64,000 bases of DNA, from the NCBI GenBank assembly GCA_037903355.1, contig JBAJFE010000026.1:7068001-7132000 (forward strand), read 5' to 3'. The notes below the pieces were generated by a model that searched no databases, was not told the origin of the DNA, and saw nothing but the letters and a program-made list of their open reading frames with translations. The translations under genes and the position numbers were made by a program. Shown here one piece after another: positions 10,777-64,000 of this stretch. Within the stretch, counting starts at the first letter, position 1, and the number at the start of each line of letters is the position of its first letter. This DNA comes from Trichuris trichiura. Lineage: Eukaryota > Nematoda > Enoplea > Trichinellida > Trichuridae.

Positions 10777-11996
10777 TTAAAGCCCGTTAGCTTTAGTTGA
10801 ATTGTGAAGGTTGCCACGTTCCTGATGTTTCACCTGTTGACTACCAAGTACAGAATGGGAACTCAAGGAAACGGAATTGTCTATCGAAAAAGGGATGGCG
10901 AAAGGAGACTGCGACTGAAGCTGCATTAACGGAGGTGATGATCGAAAGCTCTTCGACGCGCCGGATGACCAAATCGGTGAACTGATCGAGCACAACGGAT
11001 TTCTGTACATAAGGTTACCCTCAAGAATGGAGGATAGGTAATTGCCTCCAAGCGTATTCACAGTATTCCAGCATGAAGGGACAGCACCAAAGCTCGGATT
11101 ACGAAATGGAAATGGCACAAAGGCAGAGTACGGATACGCACTGGTTAGCTGTTGGTTCAAGAAATCATTATGAGACAATTTTTGTCCATTCGAAACAGCC
11201 GAAGGCACCGCGGTGGTCCCATCGTCGAACAGTAGCTTGTGCGGACTTGCCACTTCGCTGTTGGACAACAAATGTTCAATCGCTTTCACTATGTCACCGT
11301 TAAAACTCAGAAGAGCCATTTCAATGGTTTCTTTTTTGTGATTCGGGAAAAGGCGCCCTAGAATGTCATAATGACTCAGCTGACTGACTTCTTCATCGCC
11401 TGAAGGCTGAGCAGCAGCCAAACGCCCTTTCTCCATACCGAACTCACTGTTGCCATGAGTTAATGGCAGCAGGTTACTGCTATTCACTTTATCTTCGTTC
11501 TCGCAAGGTTTATCTAGCTCATTCCGTTTGCCGGCAGTTGTACCATTAGAATCCACCATTTCAGATAGAGAGAAGCTGCCCCATACCGGACCAGGTGGAA
11601 GACATGGCATACCAGTGGTTTCTCCTGTTACAGTGCGTAATCCAAGTGCAATAGCGTCCTCTGCCGCTTGTTGCCTTTTAAGGCTGACCTGTGCAGCCAT
11701 GACGCGTTGCCGTTCAGCGATCAAGTTGCATTTGATGCATGTGCAGTCTCTGCAGAGAGGAGAATGATGGAAGTCACAAATCGAAACGATGAACATGTAA
11801 TTATTTACTTGTACTTGCAATGGCGCTTGTGACCTTTTAACCAGGAGACCATACCATGATTTCTGCATCGAGCGCATTTAGGTCTTCGTACTCCACGTTC
11901 GGCATGAGCGTAAGGAAGAAGATCCGTACCCCTCATCATGATTGTATCGTTAGCAGGTTGCTCGTAGCCAGCGTTTCTGAATGTTGCTGCTTGCAT
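10777..11996 (-). CDS. dmd-4: DM-domain transcription factor with DMA domain (DMRT4/5, dmd-4 class)
   Basis: A sequence-specific nuclear transcription factor of the doublesex/mab-3 family, 386 residues from two exons (11809-11996 and 10777-11749) joined across a 59-bp GT-AG intron. The DM domain spans about residues 37-83. Visible zinc ligands include CARC (41-44), HC (59-60) and the C65/C67/C70 cluster, and the recognition tail [10 protein letters not shown] is intact. The intron splits a lysine codon just before the DCTC motif, so the two zinc sites lie on different exons. Residues about 187-225 form a DMA (CUE-like) domain with the core [13 protein letters not shown] domain plus DMA places the gene with vertebrate DMRT4/5 (DMRTA) and C. 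elegans dmd-4; the symbol is inferred from this architecture. The C-terminal 160 residues are Ser/Pro/Phe-rich and unstructured. The ATG at 11996 was chosen as the first one upstream of the domain, but the frame stays open further upstream, so a longer N-terminus or another 5' exon is possible. The DM family controls sexual dimorphism and neuronal fates in animals. Confidence 0.95.
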
Positions 11997-23697: not shown

Positions 23698-26332
23698 CAG
23701 TCGGCCCTCGTTATCCGCGGATTCTATACAACGCGGTTTGTCCAGCGTGAAATAGTGACGTCATCTTTTCACAAAAACATGCGCACCGCTGGCTGGCATT
23801 ATAATTGCACTAGTGTCGTTGCATGCCTGTGCAGCAGTGTGATCATCTGCCCGGGCGCGAAAGACCTTTTTTGCCTACAACGCTCTCTAACCGTGCACAA
23901 TGCTAATGAGGCCTTGTCATTTTTCTGACTGCTCATTATTGCTTCGTGCGCGTTGTCGCGGCCGCGCGCTGTGCGCAAATATCAGTTTCCCTGCAGCGTG
24001 GTCGGTCTGAACTTTCGCGTCGTGTAACTGGTGTCGCATAGAAGGATGGCTGACAGAAGGCAACTAAATGAACAGAGCGGTTCCTCTAGGGCTAAGAGAC
24101 AACGTAGCGTCCTTATTCTTCATGAGAAAGTAGAAGTCCTAGATCTTTTGAAAAGCGGATTGTCATGTGCCGATGTGGGCCGCAAGATCGGGAAGAATGA
24201 ATCCAGCATTCGTACGATAAAGCAGCAAGAAGCTGAGATTCGAAGAAGCGTGCATTCCGACCCTTCACTGGCGAAAAGAGCTGCTGTAGTTCGCAACAAA
24301 GTCCTCGTGAAGGCTGAGAAAGCGCTAAGCGTTTGGATAGAGGACATGTCGCGGAAGCGTGTCCCTGTCGACGGGAAAGTTATTCGGGAGAAAGCGCTGA
24401 GCTTATAAGAGCTCTTCTCTGGCTCGGTTGCAGAGAACGAGAGAAAAGAGTTTACTGCTAGCAAAGGATGGCTAAGCCAAATATGTGAAGGCTTCAACCT
24501 CAAGAACTTAAAGATCACTGGAGAAGCGGCATCGGCTGATTGCGTAGCTGCCTCGACATTCCCGGAGGAATTCAAAGAGATAGTGGACCAAAAGGGATAT
24601 CTCCCAGAACAAATCTTCAATTGTGACGAGACGGCATTATTCTGGAAGCAAATGCCAAAGCGCACGTACATCCACAAGAGCGCAAAGCAAGCCCCGGGAT
24701 TCAAGCCACTGAAAAGTCGACTCACTCTTGTGCTCTGTGGCAACGCTGCAGGACACATGATAAAGCCCGGCGTTGTCTACCGGACTCGTAATCCTCGGTC
24801 GCTCAGAAACAAGAACAAGGATTGCCTGCCGGTCTTCTGGCAGCACAACAAGAAGGCGTGGATGACGGTTATCCTTTTTACGGAGTGGTTTAACCAATGC
24901 TTCATTCCTGAAGCGAAAAAGTACCTGGAAAGCAAGGGGATGGCTTTCAAGGTCCTCCTCGTAATTGATAACGCCTCTGGTCACCCGCGATCTCTTTGCT
25001 TCGCTAATGAAAACGTCGAGGTGAAATTTTTGCCTGCTAACTCGACATCACTACTACAGCCACTGGATCAGGGCGCCATAAAATGCATTAAGGCTACTTA
25101 TACTCGTCTCGTATTTGGAAAGCTTCGTGATACCCTCCACGCTAATGCTGATTGCGATCTTACCGGCTTGTGGAAGCGTTTCTCAATTGCAGACGCTATC
25201 GCCCTCATTGCGGAGGCAGTACACGAGATAAAGCCTAGAACAGTCAGTGCTTGCTGGAAGCGTTTGTGGAGAGACGCAGTCAGTGAATGCGAGGACTTAG
25301 GTGCCATCGATGAGGAGGTCATGGGCATAGTGAATATTGCCAAGGAGTTGGGAGGTGAGGGTTTCTCCGACATGATAGAAGACGATATCAGAGAGCACAT
25401 AGAAGATTGTGGAGAACCGTTTACCAACAAGGAACTCGAAGAACTGATGCAATCACCTACGGCCAGTGACGACGACGTTATGGAAGATACAGAAGCTCAA
25501 ACACCCTCGGATTGGACGCTGCAAAAGCTGGCCACTATTTTCCGGCAAGCGCAGGTCCTAAAGGATATGATTGTTGCATATGATCCTTCCACGGAACGTG
25601 GCATCATCGTTACACGAGGAATAACGGCTTCGTTGAAACCGCTACAGGATTTATTCGATGAAGCGAAGAAAAGGGAGAGACAGCTCCCTATAACAATGTT
25701 TTTAACTAAAGCTCCGGCAGCTGGGGAGCCTATCATTTTAAGGCGAGAAGTTTCGCTACCAACAAGTTCAAGCAACCCTAGGGCTGGCCGGTTTCCAGGG
25801 GACCTGCACCCACCTACAGAAAGTGAGTGAATTGTCTGATTCCTGATGCGCCAAACATTTCTACCCGTAGACGTTTTGTTCTATGTGGATGTGTTCCATG
25901 TGATGTTCAGTATTTCTGCTTAAGTGCGCCTATGTATTTTATATTTCCCCTGCTCTGTACCCATTCCGCGCACCAGTACATTGCTTAGCTCATTAAAGCA
26001 AGGTGATTCCAAGGCGTTTAAAGAAAGATCATCCTACTTTCGTCCTTTCTTGTATGTAATGGCTTGGAATCTGATGGCTGGCCCCACTGGACAAGCGCAG
26101 TCTCATTGATGTCATTATCTCGTAGCTAGATTCCGTACTACCAAGTTTCAAAGCATCACTAGGTATGATAACCGTTCCGGAAGGAATTCAGGGGGATAGG
26201 ATGAAATACTCAGCTGGAATACAAGCTATTTGGCCTCTTTCATAGGGTATCCTATACAACGCGGAATTCGTTTTACGCGGTGTAACGCTCAAAATTCGGG
26301 ACGAATTCACCGCGGATAACGAGGGCCGACTG
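23698..26332 (+). mobile_element. pogo/Tigger DNA transposon (Tc1-mariner superfamily)
   Basis: A 2635-bp element bounded by perfect 23-bp terminal inverted repeats that start CAGTCGGCCCTCGTTATCCG, flanked on both sides by TA (23696-23697 and 26333-26334), the target duplication of this superfamily. Inside the repeats a 13-bp block, CTATACAACGCGG, recurs in direct orientation near each end (23724-23736 and 26262-26274), possibly extra transposase binding sites. The single gene is a Tigger-type transposase interrupted by one stop codon. Perfect termini and an otherwise open frame indicate recent insertion. It lies between the arrestin gene's 3' end and a TTAGGC foldback element. Confidence 0.97.
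24046..25830 (+). pseudogene. Tigger transposase with a single in-frame TAA
   Basis: A 594-codon transposase frame, intact except for TAA at 24406-24408 (codon 121) within EKALSL-stop-ELFSGS; related proteins usually have tyrosine here, so one base change at the third position explains it. Domains in order: an N-terminal pipsqueak-type helix-turn-helix (about 20-75, KSGLSCADVGRKIGKNESSI), a CENP-B-type DNA-binding domain (about 90-170, through ASKGWLSQICEGFNL), and a DDE_1 catalytic core. Catalytic aspartates are visible in FNCDETALFW, LLVIDNASGHP and LLQPLDQGAI, the DDD arrangement typical of Tigger. The acidic tail (EEDI/EELMQSP region) and a basic C-terminus follow. The ATG at 24046 is the first in frame; the frame extends a few codons upstream only with GTG. 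Without readthrough the product is a 120-residue DNA-binding fragment. Confidence 0.95.
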
Positions 26333-31679: not shown

Positions 31680-34600
31680 TCATGCGTGATTCGATATAAC
31701 GGGTTCCATTTTTTCAGTGTGATACTCTGGACTGGTCATGTAATAATGAATCAACAAGTCGTTTAAGTACTTGTATTCTTCCTACAATATGAACAATACT
31801 GTAAGAATAATATACCTCCTTGTGTACGGAGAAAATTAAACCAACGTTATTACTGTGCAAATATCTGAAATATTTTAAAAATGAATTTTTTAAAGGTTCT
31901 TACCCTATGATCGAACAACTGGGGCCTGTTCAAACGGACAATCTTTGCCGCATGGAAGACGTCGACTCTTTGTTCGACATCTATTTGGTCTATTAAAATA
32001 TTTATAGCAACAAAGATACCGCATCTGCTGACTCCGTTGCTGAAATAGTTTCAATTAAAAGTTTGATGATTGTAGGTTTCAGTCTCTTACTGAGATATAA
32101 CCACGGTAGGCTTTGTGTCAGGCCGATCAGGTGCTCGTTTTCTCCAGAGGCGCGCCATTTTTATGACGTCGATTAATCCTGAGGTGGACAGCGGTACACG
32201 ATGCTGAGCAGGCCAGATTCTAACAGAAATAACGTTGCAAATTCTCGCATCGACTTCGTGAATGGAGCCCTTGCTGTTGACCATCAGTTCGGACAGTATC
32301 GAAGCCTGCAGTGCAACAATGGTGTCATAGGATGAGGGTGCTAGTCGAATGGCACCCAGCAAACACTACCTAATAGACAAGCGCATCTAGAAAAACCGCG
32401 TGCACACCATGTGAGCTAGTCTAAAATTTGGCATACACCTCTACCGTTAAAACAAATTTTTGCCGTATACCAATGAATCCAATTGGTCAGTTAACTTTCT
32501 TTCATTAGTCTCGTTATGCTTGGCCTTTTTCTTTCCCGGTATATCGAAAATTTTCTACAGAACGAACTGAGTGAGCCATTTTGAAAAAGCATTAATGTTC
32601 AAATGCGGGAAAGAAAAATTAAACTTCAACAAAATGAACAAAAACTGGAAGCGGTTACGGCTCAAGTAGGGAAAAAAGTGATATTCACCTTCTTAACTAC
32701 TTTGACAATATGTGAAGTGGCGTAGGGATATTGTTGGTAGCTCAGAACTTCAACCACAAAGGGACCATACGCTTGTCTACCTCTTGAGTGGATGAACCGA
32801 GGATAAACCTGATTAAAAAGCTGTAAATCGTCATCAACGCAGTCGGTGCAACGTTGGAAGGACCACTTTCAAATTTTCGTCGTTCGTCAAGTTCACCACT
32901 GTATGGCAGTTGTGGTCAAAAATCAACGCCCAGAAGCTGTCGATGGTATGCTGCTTTGGCCATTCGGTAACGATCCACTCGTTTTTTCGCTTGAACCCCT
33001 TAAAAGCAAAACATTAAATCAATTTCGATACAAAAAACTATATGATCTACAGCGAACATTTTTTAATATGACAAAATTTTATTCCGTTTATCTTTTTCAT
33101 ACGCTCATTTCCATATAGTCAACTAATTATAATCACAGGGAATTCTCTCTTGCATTAGGGTCGTATGGAATCATCACTAATGCCTACGTCATTTAAATTT
33201 TTGCATACTTTCGCAAAAAATTTCTATATCTTAATATATTAAGCTATGTATTGAATTCAAACAAAAATAAGAGAAATTTAAAATTTCGTTTATTGGAAAC
33301 CGCAGATGCATTGATAGAGTAATCAGATGAGACAATGCGCAGCTGCAGTGAAATTGATCCTATATAATTTAAAAGTTCTAGATGTTGAGCGCTAACGCTG
33401 CTACTACTTTCCAGTGGGCAGTCTCCGTAGAAAAGCGGGAAAAAAAGCAGCGCGAAAGGTAATTTTGAAATCCTTCTTTAAATAGTGGTACTTAATCAAA
33501 TAAGAAGCTGAAAATCTGCCTGAAGCGTTCAAGAAAAAATTCGGTCTGTTTAATGGATAGATAACTTGATTACACCTTAGATTACTATCCAGAATGTATT
33601 TTTACTTATTTCTATAATCAATAAAAGCAATAATCCTTTTGTGCAGATCCGTCATCGCGAACAGCTTTCATTACAAAAGTAGGATAGGCAGTTGATTCAT
33701 TTCAATTTTATGTAAAGCTATTTCATTCCAGCTCTGTGCGCTTCACGTATGAAATGTGCGCAAGGTACATTCGTGCTCAATTTTTTCTTTTTAGCTGACT
33801 CATAGCTCTTAAATGCGTTTGAGGTAATTACGTCATCACAGTCGATAAGGGAACGGTTACTACGCTTAATTATCTCCACTTCTAATGGGCGTACTTTCCG
33901 CTGAGTGAACAGGTAATTCGGTTTTCCCAACTTTCATTCTTTTCCGCCACTTTACCGTTTAATACCTGTCCAGCAATTGTGTCCTTACTTGAAAACAGAT
34001 CATTTTAGTTTCGTGCTGCGTGAAATTTTTGGCACCGAATCAATTCCAACATCACTAAAGTGCAGGAACCATTGTAGTGAAAGCTTTGTTGAACAATGTA
34101 TCAATCGGTTATAATTTTATAAATCAGCCATGATTTTGAAACGCAAAGAATCGCTAGTAGCTGATAAAGCTCAGCTATGTCATACGAATGAAGGATCAAG
34201 TACAGAAGAGCTTGCCGCCCGCGTTTTAAGACGCTAAAAGGATGCTCGCCTCTGCACAGAACGTCGGTGTAGGTTAAACATTTAAAAAAACGCAGGTACC
34301 ATTCGCTGATACTGAAAATGTCGAAATGTTTAACATTTAGCTCCACAGGATAATTGTAAATGAGTAATATTTGCCAGCACAAATATCTAATGCCAGTGAA
34401 ATCATTTTGCCCAGGAAAAGTATGGTATTAATGAATTCTTACTTCGCTGGCTGTCTTATTCTATCCTGGTCTATGTTTAAGCCACCATTTAAGGGCAACA
34501 CAGCCACAAAGCAATGGGAAAACAGCATACTGCTCCGTAGATGTCGCCACTGCAGGTTTGCGTGGGCGTAAGTGACAAGACCTTAGAAGTCTCCACAGGC

Positions 34601-37600
34601 GCGATCTGATTCAAACGTCGTCTAAGTATTATTTGACGTTCTATATAACGCCTACGCAAAGTATATGCCTTATCAAAAGAGCATAGATATTTCATACTTT
34701 GCCTAAAAAGGTAAAGCATTCTTTAGAATGCCTGCATTTACATTCTATTCTTTATCTCAGAACAGTGTTCAATAGATCATGTAAACGAGGTCTGCTTTAA
34801 GTGCTTTTCTTCAACCTTGAGATAATGTAAGTGTTTTTGCCTCGTTTAAGATGCGCTCCACTAAGCTGTGCTATTCATTATTGCATGTATCGCTTCACGA
34901 TGCAGTCATACGACGGTGACGTCACCGTAAGCCAGAAGTCGTCAAAGTTCAAACAAATTACCGAAGAAATGTAATCAAAAAAATTGACTTATAAATAGAC
35001 CAATCCATTAGACAAATGCTTGGGTTAATGAACACCATGTTGCATGCACATGCTACCCTGCGCTTACGTAATCAAGCCTGCACTACTATCCGATTGCAAA
35101 CATTGAATTGACGTCAACAGCCTTGATAAAACGCTTTGAAAACCTAAGACGCTCACTTCCATCATGGAAGCACACAGTTGAGTGTCAGCTTGTAAAAGCT
35201 GATGGGTAAAAGTTTGTTAAAATTCAACAAATTTCTTGCACTGACGTGTGATATGAGCTTACACTCGTATCATACGACTCAACACATGATCGCCGACGCA
35301 GTGCGTAGAAGAATTTCGAAGACTCATGAAAACTGTTATCTTTTCACAGCAGATAAAAAACACCAGTTCAATGCCAGAACTGGTCTCCGGTTAGACGAAA
35401 AGCTCTGGACGAATAATTTTAGCAACAAATGAGCCATTAATGAGATGACAATAGCCGCAAGGCGTCAAGTTAAAGAATTAGGTCTGAAAGCTTCAATGTA
35501 GCACCTTACAATGTTCTTTTACGTTAGCTGCTAAGCTCCGAGATGTTGGTAATAAATTTTTCATATTTTGTAAGCTGCTACCAGTGTACAATAACAACGC
35601 CCAACCACAGAACAAGGCTTCACATCAGGCATGCATACTTACGTCTACGTAAACCGCGTTTATGTACGTATAATCCTTGCTTTCTCCGTGAAGCGTATTG
35701 AGGTAGGGCCGCGAATTGTCTGCTAAATCGCAGCTGTCAGTTCGAGTAGTGTTATCAACGTTGTTTGGCAGTCGCTTACGAGGCACCACCATGACGTCGC
35801 GATTTTTGCCGCGATTCTCCAGTCGATGTCCTCCAGCGCAATCGCCAATCCGTAAGGCAGGCGTAAGCTGAGTGAGGAACTGAAATAAGCAGGAAAAAAC
35901 ATCAAATCATACTTGCCAAACTTTTGCATTAATAAGAAAAACATAACTCCGAGCTGCTTTGTTTCAATCAAAAATAAAGCTACTAGCATAGTAAGTACTC
36001 TCATGAGCGACCAGCAGTAGTCTTTCAGCAAAAGCAAAAAAACTGAGCAAATAGGGAAAAGCAGGCATAAAGTGTCAAGTGAAAACAAATACTTTATACT
36101 CTTGGCTATATATTGCGTCTAACGCTTGCCGACTCTGCTTGGTCGTGTACATCGAAGTCCGTTGCCGAAGTTCGTCCAGAGTAAGCGGATTTATATCACA
36201 TTGGACAGCCTCAGCAAGGGCGTCGTAAATATAAATGTACTGGTCCTGCAAATTTGTCTGATTCATTCAATTAGCAATACGAAAAACCAACATGGTTGTA
36301 TGTACCAGATTTTCAAGTATATTTTGACGGGCGTTCAAAAGCGTCCGACAATAACCGTAAACGTCTATGACGTTCTCTTCCTCAGCCAAATCAAGATTGG
36401 CATGAATTGCGAGGAAGACGCCAGAACGTCCACCTCCATTGCTACAGTGAACGATCATTGGCACATTTCTAGTGGTCTCGTGAACTGCGTCTTGAATGCG
36501 CCGCCGAAAATCCAACAGCGCACTGACATAAGGCAAGCCGTTCACTTCCCACTCTGTGAAATGGAAATGGTGCAGGTGCCTCATTACACGAACACCGTTT
36601 TCTACCTGCAAAAAACATTCTGATCATCAAGATGTGAACTTTATGCAGACGACAAACAAGTGAGCATTAGACAGAGCTAAACAAACAGTGGCTAAGGTCG
36701 ATAACACATATTTTCCACAGGAGACATTGCTTGAGTTCCAGCAACCCTGTGTTACGCGTTACACATATTCATACTTCAATGACGGCTACACTGAATTTGC
36801 CAGCACGTGCACAAAGCATAGGTCAAAAAACTAGCGTGGTCGAAAATGTCCTTATAAGGAAACTCGGCTTTCGTACCACTGAGTATAGAAGTTAGCTTGC
36901 TTAAATACTCACTACGCGAATGAGAGGGTAAAATTAGCAATATCACATCATGCTATGCTTTGGAATCTTGAAATCCTAGAAGCATTGTTAGCGACTCCGA
37001 ATAAAATTAAAGGACATCACGAAAGAAAAATTCGCATATCAGTATAGAAAAATAAGTGCGATGTTCAGCGGGTAGAAATGGACTTGTATTGACAGCCTAA
37101 AAAGGCTAATGCCCGTATACTTACCCGCGAAATCTTTAATTGGCGAATGGTGAAGTAAGCGAACGTTTTGGAGTCAACAGTTTGCACGGTAACGTCGCCG
37201 TACTGAAGCTCCGTCAAAGGCCAATACTGAAGGCACATTACCTAAAAGTGTGATTTCATTATGACGCGCCTTGCTTGACGAGAATGGCGGCGAATACCTT
37301 CATAAAGTCAAAGACCTTCGTCAACATGACCACAATTTCACATTTGGATTCCCATACCATACGCCAAAAATCAACGCACGCGTGCTTTGTTTTTACCGCT
37401 TGTGTGACAATGAACGCTTTCGGTTGAAAGAAACTCTAAAATATCATCGGTTGACGGCAATGGGAAAAAGCTAAGATGAAAGTGGAGTCGTTCACGGCGG
37501 GTTTAGTGTTCCGTAGTTTAGTTTCGACGACTAAAACGTCAGCAATGCATTATGCAGCTTTTAAAAAGTCGCTAAAGTTTACTGAACGTAAGCGACAAAA

Positions 37601-40585
37601 AGGTATTCATAATGTATTGACTTCCACTTGTTATTTGTTTTTTTAAAGTTCAGCAAAATTCAATCCAACAATCAAACTGTAAAAAGCGAAGAAACAAAAG
37701 TAGCCTAATAATCCTCGACGATATCCATTTTTGGAATGCCCGCGCATAGTAGCTATGGAATCCAACAATAACGGAAAAATTTGTAAAACGAATCCATAGG
37801 GATTTTACAAATGCAAAACACTTACATCAATATAGCTAGCGTTGATGTAGTGCGAAGAGGAGTCGAGAGGGAGCGGATGAAGAATGACCCGATTGAAGTC
37901 GTAAGGCAGAATGTCAGGGTAATTGTTCTTCTTCAAGTTAACCAATCCATATTCGCTCTTGTGACATTCCGCCACCTTCTTGAGCATCTGCAAAGAGCAA
38001 ACGAACAAACATTTTTTTCTACAACAACAGCAATCTACAAGCTCAGAGTTATACAGGCGAAAGTGTCACGCCCTCCTAGCACTACGTCAAAATATTAATA
38101 ATTCCAGCTGTTCCTGCAAGTTTTGGTAAGCACAATGTCTTCATCCGAAGTTTTGAAACCATTTTTATTCTTACGCGTAGGAGTGGAAGGAAAATCGATT
38201 AAACTTTTAAAATATCAATCAACAAAACAAAAGAAGCGTGACATAAGACTGCACTTCTCAATGACACGCCAAATCACTTTACAAAGCCGCTTGCAACTTC
38301 TTCAACGTTTAACGCATTTACATACGTACATTGTTCGCATTTAAGATTTTGGAATGAAGAAGCAATTAGAAATGCTTCATAAAAATGTTCTCTGCCTTGC
38401 ATAGAGGCTATTCATTGCATTTATGGGTTTCTTACGAGTTTACTCGTCACTAGAAGTCATAACAAAACGGACGGGCCTCCAGAGGAAACAAAGGTGACTT
38501 ATAAACCTTTACGAAGCTATGTCTTCAACGTCACAGGGAAAAAGCATATTAAATTATGGGCACAAATGGCTCGATATCTCAGCCCGCTAGCGGAATTGCT
38601 CAGCGATATGTGTTAGTACTTTGATTTAATTCAGCTATGCTCAGATGATAGAGAAAAATCGAAACCATCCTTAATGAAAGGTCTTTAAAATGCCAAGAAA
38701 GTCATGACATGATTTGTGGTTCCTTCGTTTTCCCATTAGAAGCAGTCTTTGCTTAACTTGCTTCAGTTTTAAGTTGTACTATTGGCAAGAAAGTCACGAG
38801 CGCAGAACGAACCATTTTTCCGCCAGCTCGTTCTCATTAATAAAGCAGATAAACCGCAGGCGTAAAATTGAAATAAGCACCGCATAGTTGCGGGACGAGC
38901 ATTGTTTTGAAAAAGAAACCAACTTTCTAGATTTTCAAAGCTTTTTAAAATTGCTGTTCGCCTATCCAAGATCTTGAAAAAAGCTGACGAAATTAAAAAC
39001 ACACCTGATGACATGGAGGAAAAGCCTCGCAAGCGCCGTGATGCGTTGCTCATATCGTGGACATACTCAGTTCGATATGATCTATACAAATGTGCACGAA
39101 AGATGTAAGTTATGCGAGGACTCAAACCCACAAAAATATTTTGGCACGCATACCCAAGCGTATCTGTTTTTATTAATGGACTACCCAAAAGAAATGCCGC
39201 GGAAAATTTCCCCTCTTATTTCTACTACACTTTAGGATTAACATATAAGGCCGAAAAACAGTATACAAAATAATTTACGAAAATCAGGTTCAGTATAAAA
39301 AAATCTTGCCCAACGATTAAGCATAATACGCGTAATAAATGTTGCAAATTTAAGTCGTAACTTTTTGCAGCTGATTGAACATGGTCTCATCCTTTTCAGT
39401 CGCTGTGTCGTTGTCTTGCTCAAAAGATTGAAGAATTTACGATATAAACTCTCTTCATCATGCAGAAGGTCAATCCTGAAGGCTTCATGATGCTTACTCG
39501 AATTCTGCCTTGCTGCAGAGCAGCTCGATTGCGCCTATTAAAACGAGTCGAATTTTACTTCCTTTAACTGGTTGCTCAACTTGTCCTTCTACGTTACAAT
39601 AAGCATGACGGTTATGAAAGCTTTGTCAGTAAAAGGATCATAATCGTCCAGCGGCATGAATCAGCACCTTTAATGCTTAAAAAGGTAACAATTACACGAA
39701 ATGCTAACTATGGGTTCCCAACTTCGTTTCGGAATCAATTCTTCAAAGGCGCGATAGACTCTTCATGAAAATCACACTCGGAAAAGCGCACAAAGTTCGT
39801 ACTGCCTGCTAAGACAAACTCCGCCGGCTGTCATATGTTATCCGATTATTCCACAGGAGCTGTCCAGAAATTAATTGACAGCGCTTCTCCAGTTACTAAT
39901 TAGCGGTCATTACAAGGTCACTTAAAAAAATAAAAGGCTTTGACGTGATAGCACTGACGTGACTTATCCAACAAGATCAAGAAATTACCTGAATGAATTC
40001 ATATGAACGTTGGTCTACTACGTTTACAATTTTTTTATTGGGCATAAACTGGCTTTGTTGGATGATAGCGACTGCAGGATATAGGGGTAACAATAAGCAA
40101 GACTCCACATTACGCGTTTGAAATTTCGCAAAAGCTGCCAACGGACCAACGTGCGAACGAAAATTAAAGCCTTTTTGTCACCTGCATCCCTTTGTTAATG
40201 TTCAACGCGTGAACGGCTTCAAAATTCTGCCATGTGGGGTGAGGGTAAAAAGCCGTTCCCGCCGCAATTATGGTAATTTATGAAGCTTTTAAAGGGCGTC
40301 CAATCTTTCCTCGCGAATAAATTGTGCCTTCACATAACTCCCCCGTTAAACAACAAATGCAAGCTACTATTGGTGTTATCCAGCGCGTTTCATTTTTTTG
40401 TCTCCGTAATACCATTGCCGAACGCCCGCTAGACAAATATCCAAATGTAAGGAAGGACGAGCAGCTTACCATCAGCTCCCCTTTGAAGAGCATACGCTTC
40501 TTCTTGCGTTCGTTGACGAAGGCGACAAACCTTGACATTTCGATGGGACCTTGAGGAACTGCGCCCATCGCCTTTTCCTCTTGCA
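31680..40585 (-). CDS. Tandem-domain protein tyrosine phosphatase, both domains degenerate
   Basis: Twelve exons, 5' to 3': 40470-40585, 37826-37987, 37298-37435, 37125-37241, 36306-36605, 36093-36245, 35643-35879, 32867-32998, 32689-32820, 32091-32305, 31904-32039, 31680-31781. Phases close to a TGA, giving about 646 residues. A basic juxtamembrane-like wedge ([16 protein letters not shown]) precedes D1 (about 45-325): [48 protein letters not shown], signature [10 protein letters not shown] and [11 protein letters not shown]2 (about 360-635) shows [47 protein letters not shown] and LNRPQLF. The layout is that of receptor-type phosphatases with tandem D1-D2. D1 keeps Cys and Arg of the signature (Cys at residue 232) but WPD reads WEV and the Q-loop glutamine is Glu. 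D2 reads VVISHNGVSRCG, with Ser for the nucleophile. No transmembrane or extracellular exon was found upstream, so the 5' end is incomplete or the protein is cytosolic. The start of exon 32091-32305 is the least certain junction; the 46-bp intron 32821-32866 is required by frame. Confidence 0.92.
32999..35642. other. Large intron within phosphatase D2
   Basis: 2.6 kb between the first and second exons of D2. Short open stretches on both strands resemble no family, and no repeat was recognised. Confidence 0.5.
37988..40469. other. Large intron between juxtamembrane and D1 exons
   Basis: About 2.5 kb. A 77-bp minus-strand segment near 39005-39080 (frame containing [16 protein letters not shown]) is flanked by AG and GT and could be an alternative exon. 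It is not needed, because the flanking exons join directly in phase 0 and give the expected family sequence. Nothing else was supported. Confidence 0.4.
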
Positions 40586-63652: not shown

Positions 63653-64000
63653 TTAGCCTGGAAGCTTTGGAAGGCCGCCAGGTATGGGAAGGCCTCCGGG
63701 GCCTGCAGGTGCAGGTGCTGGAGCAGGAGCGGCAGGAGGAGGAGGGGCAGGAGCAGGGGCAGGAGGAGGAGCAGGAGGGGGTGCAGGTGGCGGAGCAGCT
63801 GGAGGAGGTCCAACTTGAGGCGCAGGAGCTTGCTGAGCATTTCCCGGTGGTATTGGTGCCGGTGGAGGAATAATAGAATACCCTGGAAAATGAGTAGGCC
63901 CTCCTCCAAAACCGCCTGCATTAGGAAGCATGCCAGGGAAGGCATATGGACTCGTGGGAGCTCCAAACGCTGGAGGAGCTGCCATCGCTGGAGCTGCCAT
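63653..64000 (-). CDS. Proline/alanine-rich protein, 3' exon, partial at window edge
   Basis: The last 115 codons of a minus-strand gene that continues beyond the window; the ATG at the very edge may be an internal methionine. The N-terminal half of the visible part is Pro/Gly/Phe-rich (FPGMLPNAGGFGGG, PGYSIIPPP). It is followed by a tract of about 60 residues composed of PPPAPPPAP-type repeats and a Gly/Pro/Leu tail ending PKLPG. The frame is uninterrupted, and the repeats are encoded by mixed codons rather than one perfect trinucleotide, which favours a real protein. Such sequences occur in secreted structural proteins and in polyproline ligands for SH3, WW or profilin proteins; the function cannot be assigned. 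The Gln/Glu-rich frame on the opposite strand is its shadow. Confidence 0.65.
   Translation of the reverse strand: MAAPAMAAPPAFGAPTSPYAFPGMLPNAGGFGGGPTHFPGYSIIPPPAPIPPGNAQQAPAPQVGPPPAAPPPAPPPAPPPAPAPAPPPPAAPAPAPAPAGPGGLPIPGGLPKLPG

What the first reader, a model, noticed from the sequence alone, without database searches (positions are those of the whole stretch)
36306..36605. Phosphatase D1: intact CX5R signature but WPD loop is WEV
Seen: HCSNGGGRSG keeps Cys and Arg, but the general-acid motif reads WEV at 36543-36551 and the Q-loop glutamine aligns with Glu (NILENLDQY). Known: replacing the WPD aspartate and the Q-loop glutamine turns PTPs into substrate-trapping forms that bind phosphotyrosine but turn over poorly. 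Inference: this could be a natural phosphotyrosine trap.
Basis: partly seen in the sequence, partly recalled or inferred. Interest (0 to 1): 0.75.

Follow-up and report, generated by a model that had tools for sequence, protein, structure and literature searches.

The report
Conserved dead tyrosine phosphatase in nematodes
A whipworm gene that databases call a tyrosine phosphatase has lost residues needed to remove phosphate but kept those that hold it, and nearly all the roundworm and arthropod relatives examined show the same pattern, so it probably binds or scaffolds signalling proteins instead of acting as an enzyme.

Summary
Minus-strand exon 36605-36306 encodes the second half of a PTP D1 domain with HCSNGGGRSG, WEV instead of WPD (36551-36543) and Glu at the Q-loop glutamine. 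Twelve exons (40585-31680) give a tandem D1-D2 protein matching Trichuris suis. It is not an isolated error: in 188 of 189 readable family rows (nematodes, arthropods, a tardigrade) D1 lacks the WPD aspartate, and in 188 of 188 the Q-loop glutamine, while D1 keeps Cys and Arg. D2 has Ser for Cys in 183 of 185 rows and Arg in 185 of 185. The family is the T13H5.1 / Ptp36E group, annotated as receptor phosphatase kappa/mu; it forms one clade apart from fish R2B and LAR rows, and 150 of 163 models show no transmembrane stretch by hydropathy. Useful catalysis is very probably lost. "Natural phosphotyrosine trap" is plausible, most of all in nematodes (pTyr-loop Tyr kept), but binding is untested, and P-loop Ala to Asn/Asp and Q-loop Gln to Glu/Asp argue for caution. 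A phosphate-blind scaffold, as proposed for human PTPRU, is the main rival. The papers I could search and the passages I read do not state that Ptp36E or T13H5.1 is inactive.

The parts
36306..36605 (-). exon of D1 given in the finding: WPD loop (WEV), P-loop, first half of Q-loop
   Evidence: PF00102 70.3 bits
36543..36551 (-). WEV in place of WPD (Trp-Glu-Val)
   Evidence: aligned to WPD of LAR/PTPRS
36420..36449 (-). D1 P-loop HCSNGGGRSG, Cys and Arg of CX5R kept
36312..36314 (-). Glu at the position of the Q-loop glutamine (Q262 of PTP1B, number recalled)
40470..40585 (-). exon upstream of D1, VQEEKAMGAVPQGPIEMSRFVAFVNERKKKRMLFKGELM (first residue inferred; its codon is completed by the exon before, not found)
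   Evidence: matches nematode VQEEKAMQ...ERRKKRILFKGEY
37826..37987 (-). D1 exon with pTyr-recognition loop KNNYPD
37298..37435 (-). D1 exon, FWRMVWE and E-loop start KVFDF
37125..37241 (-). D1 exon, VMCLQYWP (E-loop Lys replaced by Met)
36093..36245 (-). D1 end (DQYIYIYDAL) and D1-D2 linker
35643..35879 (-). D2 start, GDCAGGHRLENRGKNRDVMVVP
32867..32998 (-). D2 exon
   Evidence: PF00102 hit
32689..32808 (-). D2 exon
32091..32305 (-). D2 exon with WPA; ends in the D2 P-loop (Ser for Cys at 32095-32093)
31904..32039 (-). D2 exon, NGVSRCG (P-loop Arg kept at 32026-32024)
   Evidence: PF00102 hit
31680..31781 (-). D2 last exon with stop codon

Best explanation
The gene is the Trichuris member of an ecdysozoan tandem pseudophosphatase family (T13H5.1 of C. 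elegans, Ptp36E of insects). Shown by sequence: D1 has lost the general acid (WPD Asp), the E-loop Lys, the water-positioning Q-loop Gln, the P-loop Ala and the KNRY Arg, but keeps the P-loop Cys and Arg, the second Q-loop Gln and, in nematodes, the pTyr-loop Tyr and Asp; D2 has Ser for the nucleophile and keeps its P-loop Arg. Inferred: neither domain turns over phosphotyrosine at a useful rate. Inferred further: the protein works as a non-catalytic binder, mostly without a membrane anchor, with D1 (and possibly D2) able to hold phosphotyrosyl or other anionic ligands in the kept P-loop, shielding sites from active phosphatases or assembling partners, and with D2 as a conserved docking domain. 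My odds: 0.85 for loss of useful catalysis, 0.5 for binding through the P-loop.
Against: No binding or activity data exist. The Q-loop acid and the P-loop Asn/Asp could repel phosphate; Asp at that P-loop place is also found in a row I take for IA-2 (P0284). The KNRY Arg is lost throughout and the Tyr is Asn in 80 of the non-nematode rows, so phosphotyrosine-specific binding cannot be general. The Nymphon row has WPD. Nematodes keep a Glu one residue before the lost Asp (69 of 69), which could in principle act as an acid. The E-loop Glu-to-Asp change is a mild one. D2 is more conserved than D1 in all 6 nematode pairs and all 10 arthropod pairs compared, which points to D2, not the D1 pocket, as a main constraint; in the controls D2 is ahead in 6 of 10 LAR pairs and 0 of 10 R2B-like pairs.
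Confidence: 0.5

Rival explanations
1. Phosphate-blind scaffold: both PTP folds are protein-protein interaction modules; the P-loop Cys/Ser and Arg are kept for structure, and partners bind outside the pocket, as reported for human PTPRK D2 and as is possible for PTPRU D1.
For: PTPRU D1 is inactive and binds proteins reported as PTPRK substrates (PMC7320164, passages); PTPRK D2 recruits Afadin independently of phosphorylation (PMC9640194, abstract and outline). D2 of this family is highly conserved within nematodes and within arthropods. Acidic Q-loop and P-loop changes, lost KNRY Arg.
Against: P-loop Arg is kept in 185 of 185 D2 rows and 54 of 55 D1 rows, whereas in the D2 of the 25 outgroup rows it is Arg in 17 and another residue in 8, so the fold alone does not demand it. 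Nematodes keep the pTyr-loop Tyr.
Confidence: 0.33
2. Slow but real phosphatase with a relocated acid: in nematodes the invariant Glu of WE[LVA] replaces the WPD Asp.
For: Glu is invariant at that place in nematodes (69 of 69). PTP1B D181A/Q262A still turns over slowly in crystals (PMC10267100, passages).
Against: The other rows mostly have His, Pro or Ala there, followed by Ser or Cys; the E-loop Lys is absent in every family row listed and the Q-loop Gln in 188 of 188; a WPD-to-WPE change alone cut PTPRK D1 turnover about 115-fold (PMC7320164, passages).
Confidence: 0.08
3. Redox or phosphocysteine sensor: the kept D1 Cys is oxidised or phosphorylated and switches partner binding.
For: D1 Cys is invariant (55 of 55 de-duplicated rows); PTPRU is called redox sensitive in its title (PMC7320164) and PRLs pass through a phosphocysteine and also act as pseudophosphatases (PMC12192612, start of abstract in the listing).
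Against: No direct evidence; D2, equally conserved, has no Cys there.
Confidence: 0.07
4. Artefact: sequencing or assembly error in this window.
For: None.
Against: WEV is also in T. suis, T. trichiura and Trichinella rows, and the Asp is missing in 188 of 189 readable family rows.
Confidence: 0.005

Closest known systems
C. elegans T13H5.1 and insect Ptp36E (annotated as receptor-type phosphatase kappa/mu)
   Same: Same family: 54-55% identity to the C. elegans rows P0080-P0085 and mostly 38-41% to arthropod rows over the 642-residue region; same lost and kept residues. The names come from P0100 ('Protein T13H5.1 b', Aphelenchoides) and P0182 ('Ptp36E', Maniola); that the C. elegans rows are T13H5.1 itself is inferred
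   Different: Non-nematode rows mostly have W[HPA][SC]H rather than WE[VL], Asp rather than Asn in the P-loop, and Asn in place of the pTyr-loop Tyr
Human PTPRU (R2B) D1 pseudophosphatase
   Same: Tandem PTP; D1 Cys kept with altered WPD and pTyr loop; [quoted passage not shown]
   Different: PTPRU has WPE, GSRQ and a P-loop Thr, and belongs to receptors with large extracellular domains; PTPRU itself was not in the tree, and the three fish R2B rows fell outside the family clade
IA-2 / PTPRN
   Same: Acidic residue in the P-loop (HCSDGAGRTG in P0284; that this row is IA-2 is my reading) and altered WPD
   Different: Single PTP domain (recalled); an inactive phosphatase of dense-core vesicle membranes (PMC2657203, start of abstract in the listing)
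PTP1B D181A/Q262A substrate-trapping mutant
   Same: Loss of the same two catalytic positions with Cys, Arg and Q266 kept (PMC10267100, passages)
   Different: Engineered, Ala at both places; here Val and Glu, with four further active-site changes
C. elegans EGG-4/EGG-5
   Same: Nematode pseudophosphatases that regulate the kinase MBK-2 (only one sentence and reference titles seen; the paper is not held; mechanism recalled)
   Different: Not compared by sequence here; a single PTP-like domain (recalled)

Membership tests
Classical PTP fold (PF00102) | Pfam Y_phosphatase match above cut-off; PTP fold | tested here: met
Catalytically competent class I PTP | CX5R nucleophile loop | tested here: met
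   D1 HCSNGGGRSG; D2 does not have it (Ser)
Catalytically competent class I PTP | WPD-loop aspartate | tested here: not met
   WEV; 188 of 189 readable relatives without an acid there
Catalytically competent class I PTP | Q-loop glutamine (first) | tested here: not met
   Glu; 0 of 188 rows Gln
Catalytically competent class I PTP | turnover of phosphotyrosine | not testable with these tools
   needs enzyme assay
T13H5.1 / Ptp36E family | one clade with the C. elegans and arthropod rows, apart from other RPTPs | tested here: met
   SH-aLRT 100 for 29 rows against 25, motif columns left out, quick search without bootstrap. The rows that carry the two names (P0100, P0182) were not in the tree; C. 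elegans P0080 and Papilio P0180 were
R2B receptors (PTPRK/M/T/U), the databases' label | MAM-Ig-FN3 ectodomain (definition recalled) | tested here: not met
   Only phosphatase-fold models in P0055, P0080, P0182, P0163 and in the precomputed domains of the family rows.
R2B receptors (PTPRK/M/T/U), the databases' label | groups with vertebrate R2B in a tree | tested here: inconclusive
   three fish R2B rows fell outside the family clade, but deep branches are weak
Receptor PTP | transmembrane segment before D1 | tested here: inconclusive
   13 of 163 family models have a hydrophobic stretch (Kyte-Doolittle mean over 19 residues of 1.6 or more): 8 Trichinella and 5 crustacean rows; the Trichuris first exon was not found
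Substrate-trapping PTP | acid lost, Cys and Arg kept | tested here: met
Substrate-trapping PTP | stable binding of phosphotyrosine ligands | not testable with these tools
   needs binding assay

The most novel reading that the evidence does not exclude
An ecdysozoan gene family, carried for over half a billion years (age of the nematode-arthropod split, recalled) under the name of receptor tyrosine phosphatase, is a cytosolic double phosphotyrosine reader: D1 a natural acid-less trap and D2 a natural Cys-to-Ser trap, giving animals a bidentate non-SH2, non-PTB phosphotyrosine-binding module.
Probability: 0.15. Interest if true: 0.85.

Novelty: new variant of a known kind. Interest (0 to 1): 0.62.

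Why it matters
Ptp36E and T13H5.1 are treated in screens and annotation as phosphatases: in a fly phosphatase RNAi panel (PMC5144990, passages), as 'predicted to be involved in protein dephosphorylation' (PMC10099834, passages), and under 'Phosphatases' in a worm gene table (PMC10802606, passage). If the family cannot dephosphorylate, phenotypes must be read as loss of a binder or scaffold, and C. elegans and Drosophila become simple systems for asking what a conserved tandem pseudophosphatase is for and whether evolution has made its own substrate traps.

Tried and rejected
Isolated error or pseudogene: rejected by orthologues. D2 misread as D1: considered because HCSNGGGRSG resembles the fish R2B D2 loop HCLNGGGRSG (P0005); rejected because another PTP domain lies downstream. 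A real truncated isoform ending at the catalytic Cys, suggested by 19 models that stop within about 50 residues after VHC (16 with a nematode name shown, three with no organism shown): probably annotation splits at an intron, since the second-half models start with unlike residues; left open. N-terminal exons of Trichuris: tblastn of relatives' N-termini gave no minus-strand hit over 24 bits beyond 40500, and reading translated minus-strand stretches of 38 residues or more up to 62000 by eye showed no Ig, FN3 or MAM domain. C. elegans PTP-4 (PMC13265298, passages): described as receptor-like with a FERM domain and two phosphatase domains and said by its authors to be presumably active; no gene identifier found in the text, sequence not compared, so whether it is this gene is not settled; Pfam finds no FERM domain in P0080. 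Not used. Literature on Ptp36E, T13H5.1 or CG7180 (the last number for Ptp36E is recalled): searches; passages read in PMC5144990, PMC10099834, PMC12667889 (a plasmid name, unrelated), PMC10802606 and PMC4238976; none says the protein is inactive. Subscription papers are not held, so the point may be in print. Fold comparison adds only that the fold is canonical; no coordinates were available to measure the pocket.

Limits of the counts: the 219 family rows are those scoring over 50 bits better with a family HMM than with an outgroup HMM, out of 291 rows from three searches (the best 120 of 1204; 119). The family HMM includes the motif columns, so membership is slightly circular; the tree without them covers 29 family rows only. 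Rows are clusters, and isoforms of one gene count apart (six C. elegans rows); one search uses 55 rows after removing D1s over 85% alike. In one search, where His was not required, Cys is 192 of 196; the four others are P0034 (misaligned) and P0110, P0111, P0124 (models that begin inside the P-loop). Three border rows (P0036, P0049, P0053) were dropped; P0036 reads WQVN. P0068 and P0244 (D2 not Ser) look like model or alignment faults; not proven. The nematode/other division was made by me from row numbers and names; some rows carry no name.

Full report
What is there. The finding lies on the minus strand of a eukaryotic gene with introns. The stretch 36306-36605 is exactly one exon, with an AG acceptor and a GT donor. 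It encodes the second half of a PTP D1 domain: WEV at 36551-36543, HCSNGGGRSG at 36449-36420 and NILENL at its end; the next exon (36245-36093) begins DQYIYIYDAL. HMMER aligns WEV with WPD, HCSNGGGRSG with HCSAGVGRTG and the Glu of ILENLDQY with the Gln of MVQTEDQY in LAR and PTPRS.

The whole gene part. Twelve exons from 40585 to 31680, with AG acceptors, GT donors at the eleven internal junctions and consistent phase, give 642 residues: a short lead-in, D1, a linker, D2 and a stop. D2 reads KNRD in the pTyr loop, WPA in the WPD place and SHNGVSRCG in the P-loop, so its nucleophile is Ser. The window belongs to an assembly of 72.7 Mb in 62 contigs. The region is 95% identical over 94% of its length to the Trichuris suis model P0055 and 100% (as rounded) over the 472 columns compared in the tree set, so the source is very probably T. 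suis. The first exon was not found.

Relatives. Search 1 and one search gave nematode relatives at about 46-95% identity and arthropod and tardigrade rows at 36-44%. Search 3, made with a millipede member and restricted to longer proteins, shows a gap between family rows (E 1e-135 or better, apart from the fragment P0275) and LAR-like and R2B-like receptors (E 1e-108 or worse, mostly 26-37% identity). Names in the listings tie the family to T13H5.1 (P0100, an Aphelenchoides protein) and Ptp36E (P0182, a butterfly protein); C. elegans and arthropod rows are mostly annotated as receptor-type phosphatase kappa or mu. A tree of D1-D2 with the motif columns removed puts 29 family rows on one side of a branch with SH-aLRT 100 and length 0.85; 25 other rows (LAR, fish R2B, CD45, PTPRE, PTPRZ, Ptp69D and others) are on the other side. 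This was a quick search without bootstrap, and some outgroup rows are long.

Motif conservation. Over 219 family rows: the residue in the WPD Asp place is Ser 86, Leu 52, Cys 28, Val 16, Ala 3, Met, Thr and Ile 1 each, and Asp 1 (Nymphon), of 189 readable. The Q-loop Gln is Glu 126, Asp 55, Ser 4, Asn, Gly and Ala 1 each, of 188. D1 Cys and Arg are 168 of 168 where the loop starts with His; without that condition Cys is 192 of 196, the four others being one misaligned model and three that begin inside the loop. D2 is Ser in 183 of 185 and keeps Arg in 185 of 185. In nematodes the pTyr-loop Tyr or Phe is kept in 70 of 70 and the Asp two residues on in 66 of 69; in the other rows it is Asn in 80 and Tyr in 25.

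Which positions were lost. Taking 55 D1 positions with one residue in 88% or more of the outgroup rows, 34 are kept in at least 90% of 55 de-duplicated family rows, 14 are mixed and 7 are lost. The seven are the KNRY Arg, the Gly of YIDG, the E-loop Glu (now Asp, a mild change) and Lys (now Met), the WPD Asp, the P-loop Ala and the Q-loop Gln. P-loop Cys is 55 of 55, Arg 54 of 55, the second Q-loop Gln 50 of 55. So the losses fall mainly on the chemistry, and what holds phosphate stays. [quoted passage not shown] its bound phosphate is held by Cys215, Arg221, Gln266 and the substrate tyrosine (PMC10267100, passages).

Against the trap reading. Here the Gln is replaced by an acid, not Ala, and the P-loop Ala by Asn or Asp. 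Human PTPRU D1, with WPE and GSRQ, is inactive, stays inactive when its Glu is changed to Asp, and is proposed to bind substrates and protect them (PMC7320164, passages). PTPRK D2 recruits Afadin without phosphate (PMC9640194, abstract). D2 of this family is more conserved than D1 in all 6 nematode pairs and all 10 arthropod pairs compared, but not consistently between the two groups; in the controls D2 is ahead in 6 of 10 LAR pairs and 0 of 10 R2B-like pairs. So a scaffold that never uses the pocket remains likely.

Not a plain receptor. Of 163 family models that start with Met and have 40 or more residues before D1, 13 have a hydrophobic stretch of transmembrane strength: 8 Trichinella rows and 5 crustacean rows. 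The six C. elegans isoform rows P0080-P0085 differ in their first residues and the strongest stretch in any of them is 0.87, against the 1.6 used as a limit. Pfam finds no ectodomain in four rows tested. The crustacean stretches look real, so a membrane form may exist in some lineages; full-length forms longer than the search windows could have been missed.

Verdict. The trap idea is a live hypothesis, better for nematodes than for most other members, with a pocket-independent scaffold as the chief rival. Pseudophosphatases are a known kind; a tandem one with both domains changed in complementary ways, held across nematodes and arthropods and still labelled a phosphatase, is a new variant as far as the searches of the held open literature show.

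Noticed in passing
window 24028-25827, + strand: Pogo/Tigger-like DNA transposase: CENP-B_N and HTH_Tnp_Tc5 in 24028-24405, DDE_1 in 24409-25827; the two open stretches lie in one frame with a stop codon between them. The class name is my reading.
   Followed up: partly
window 10783-11877, - strand: DMRT-type gene: DMA motif (40.2 bits) and a partial DM domain just below Pfam's cut-off (23.6 of 27).
   Followed up: partly
related rows P0006-P0030 and P0101-P0161: Many nematode gene models of this family are split in two at or just after the catalytic Cys codon, in many species; probably an intron that gene finders fail on, but an intron-retention isoform is not excluded.
   Followed up: partly
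P0240 (Nymphon striatum): Only family row read with an intact WPD Asp (EWPDHSCTFSNALLEFRRRV), though its Q-loop is Glu and D2 is Ser: retention, reversal or error.
   Followed up: partly
P0141, P0156, P0163, P0164, P0165: Five crustacean rows carry a strong hydrophobic stretch starting at residue 46-60, suggesting a membrane-anchored form with a very short outside part.
   Followed up: no
P0036 (organism not shown): Border row with WQVN in place of WPD, HCSNGCGRSG and SLIENL; could be the family in another phylum.
   Followed up: no
assembly G000, L018: 54 PF00102 matches over the whole assembly (exon by exon); one other locus, L018, also departs from the usual motifs (WFEH with HCTTGAGRSG).
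   Followed up: no
window 63656-64000, - strand: Proline- and alanine-rich open stretch reaching the window end; no Pfam match for 63658-63999 in the frame scanned.
   Followed up: no
fly gene CG7180 (recalled as Ptp36E): Listed as a tyrosine phosphatase, receptor-type kappa, in a table of a fly pink1 RNAi screen (PMC4238976, one passage).
   Followed up: no
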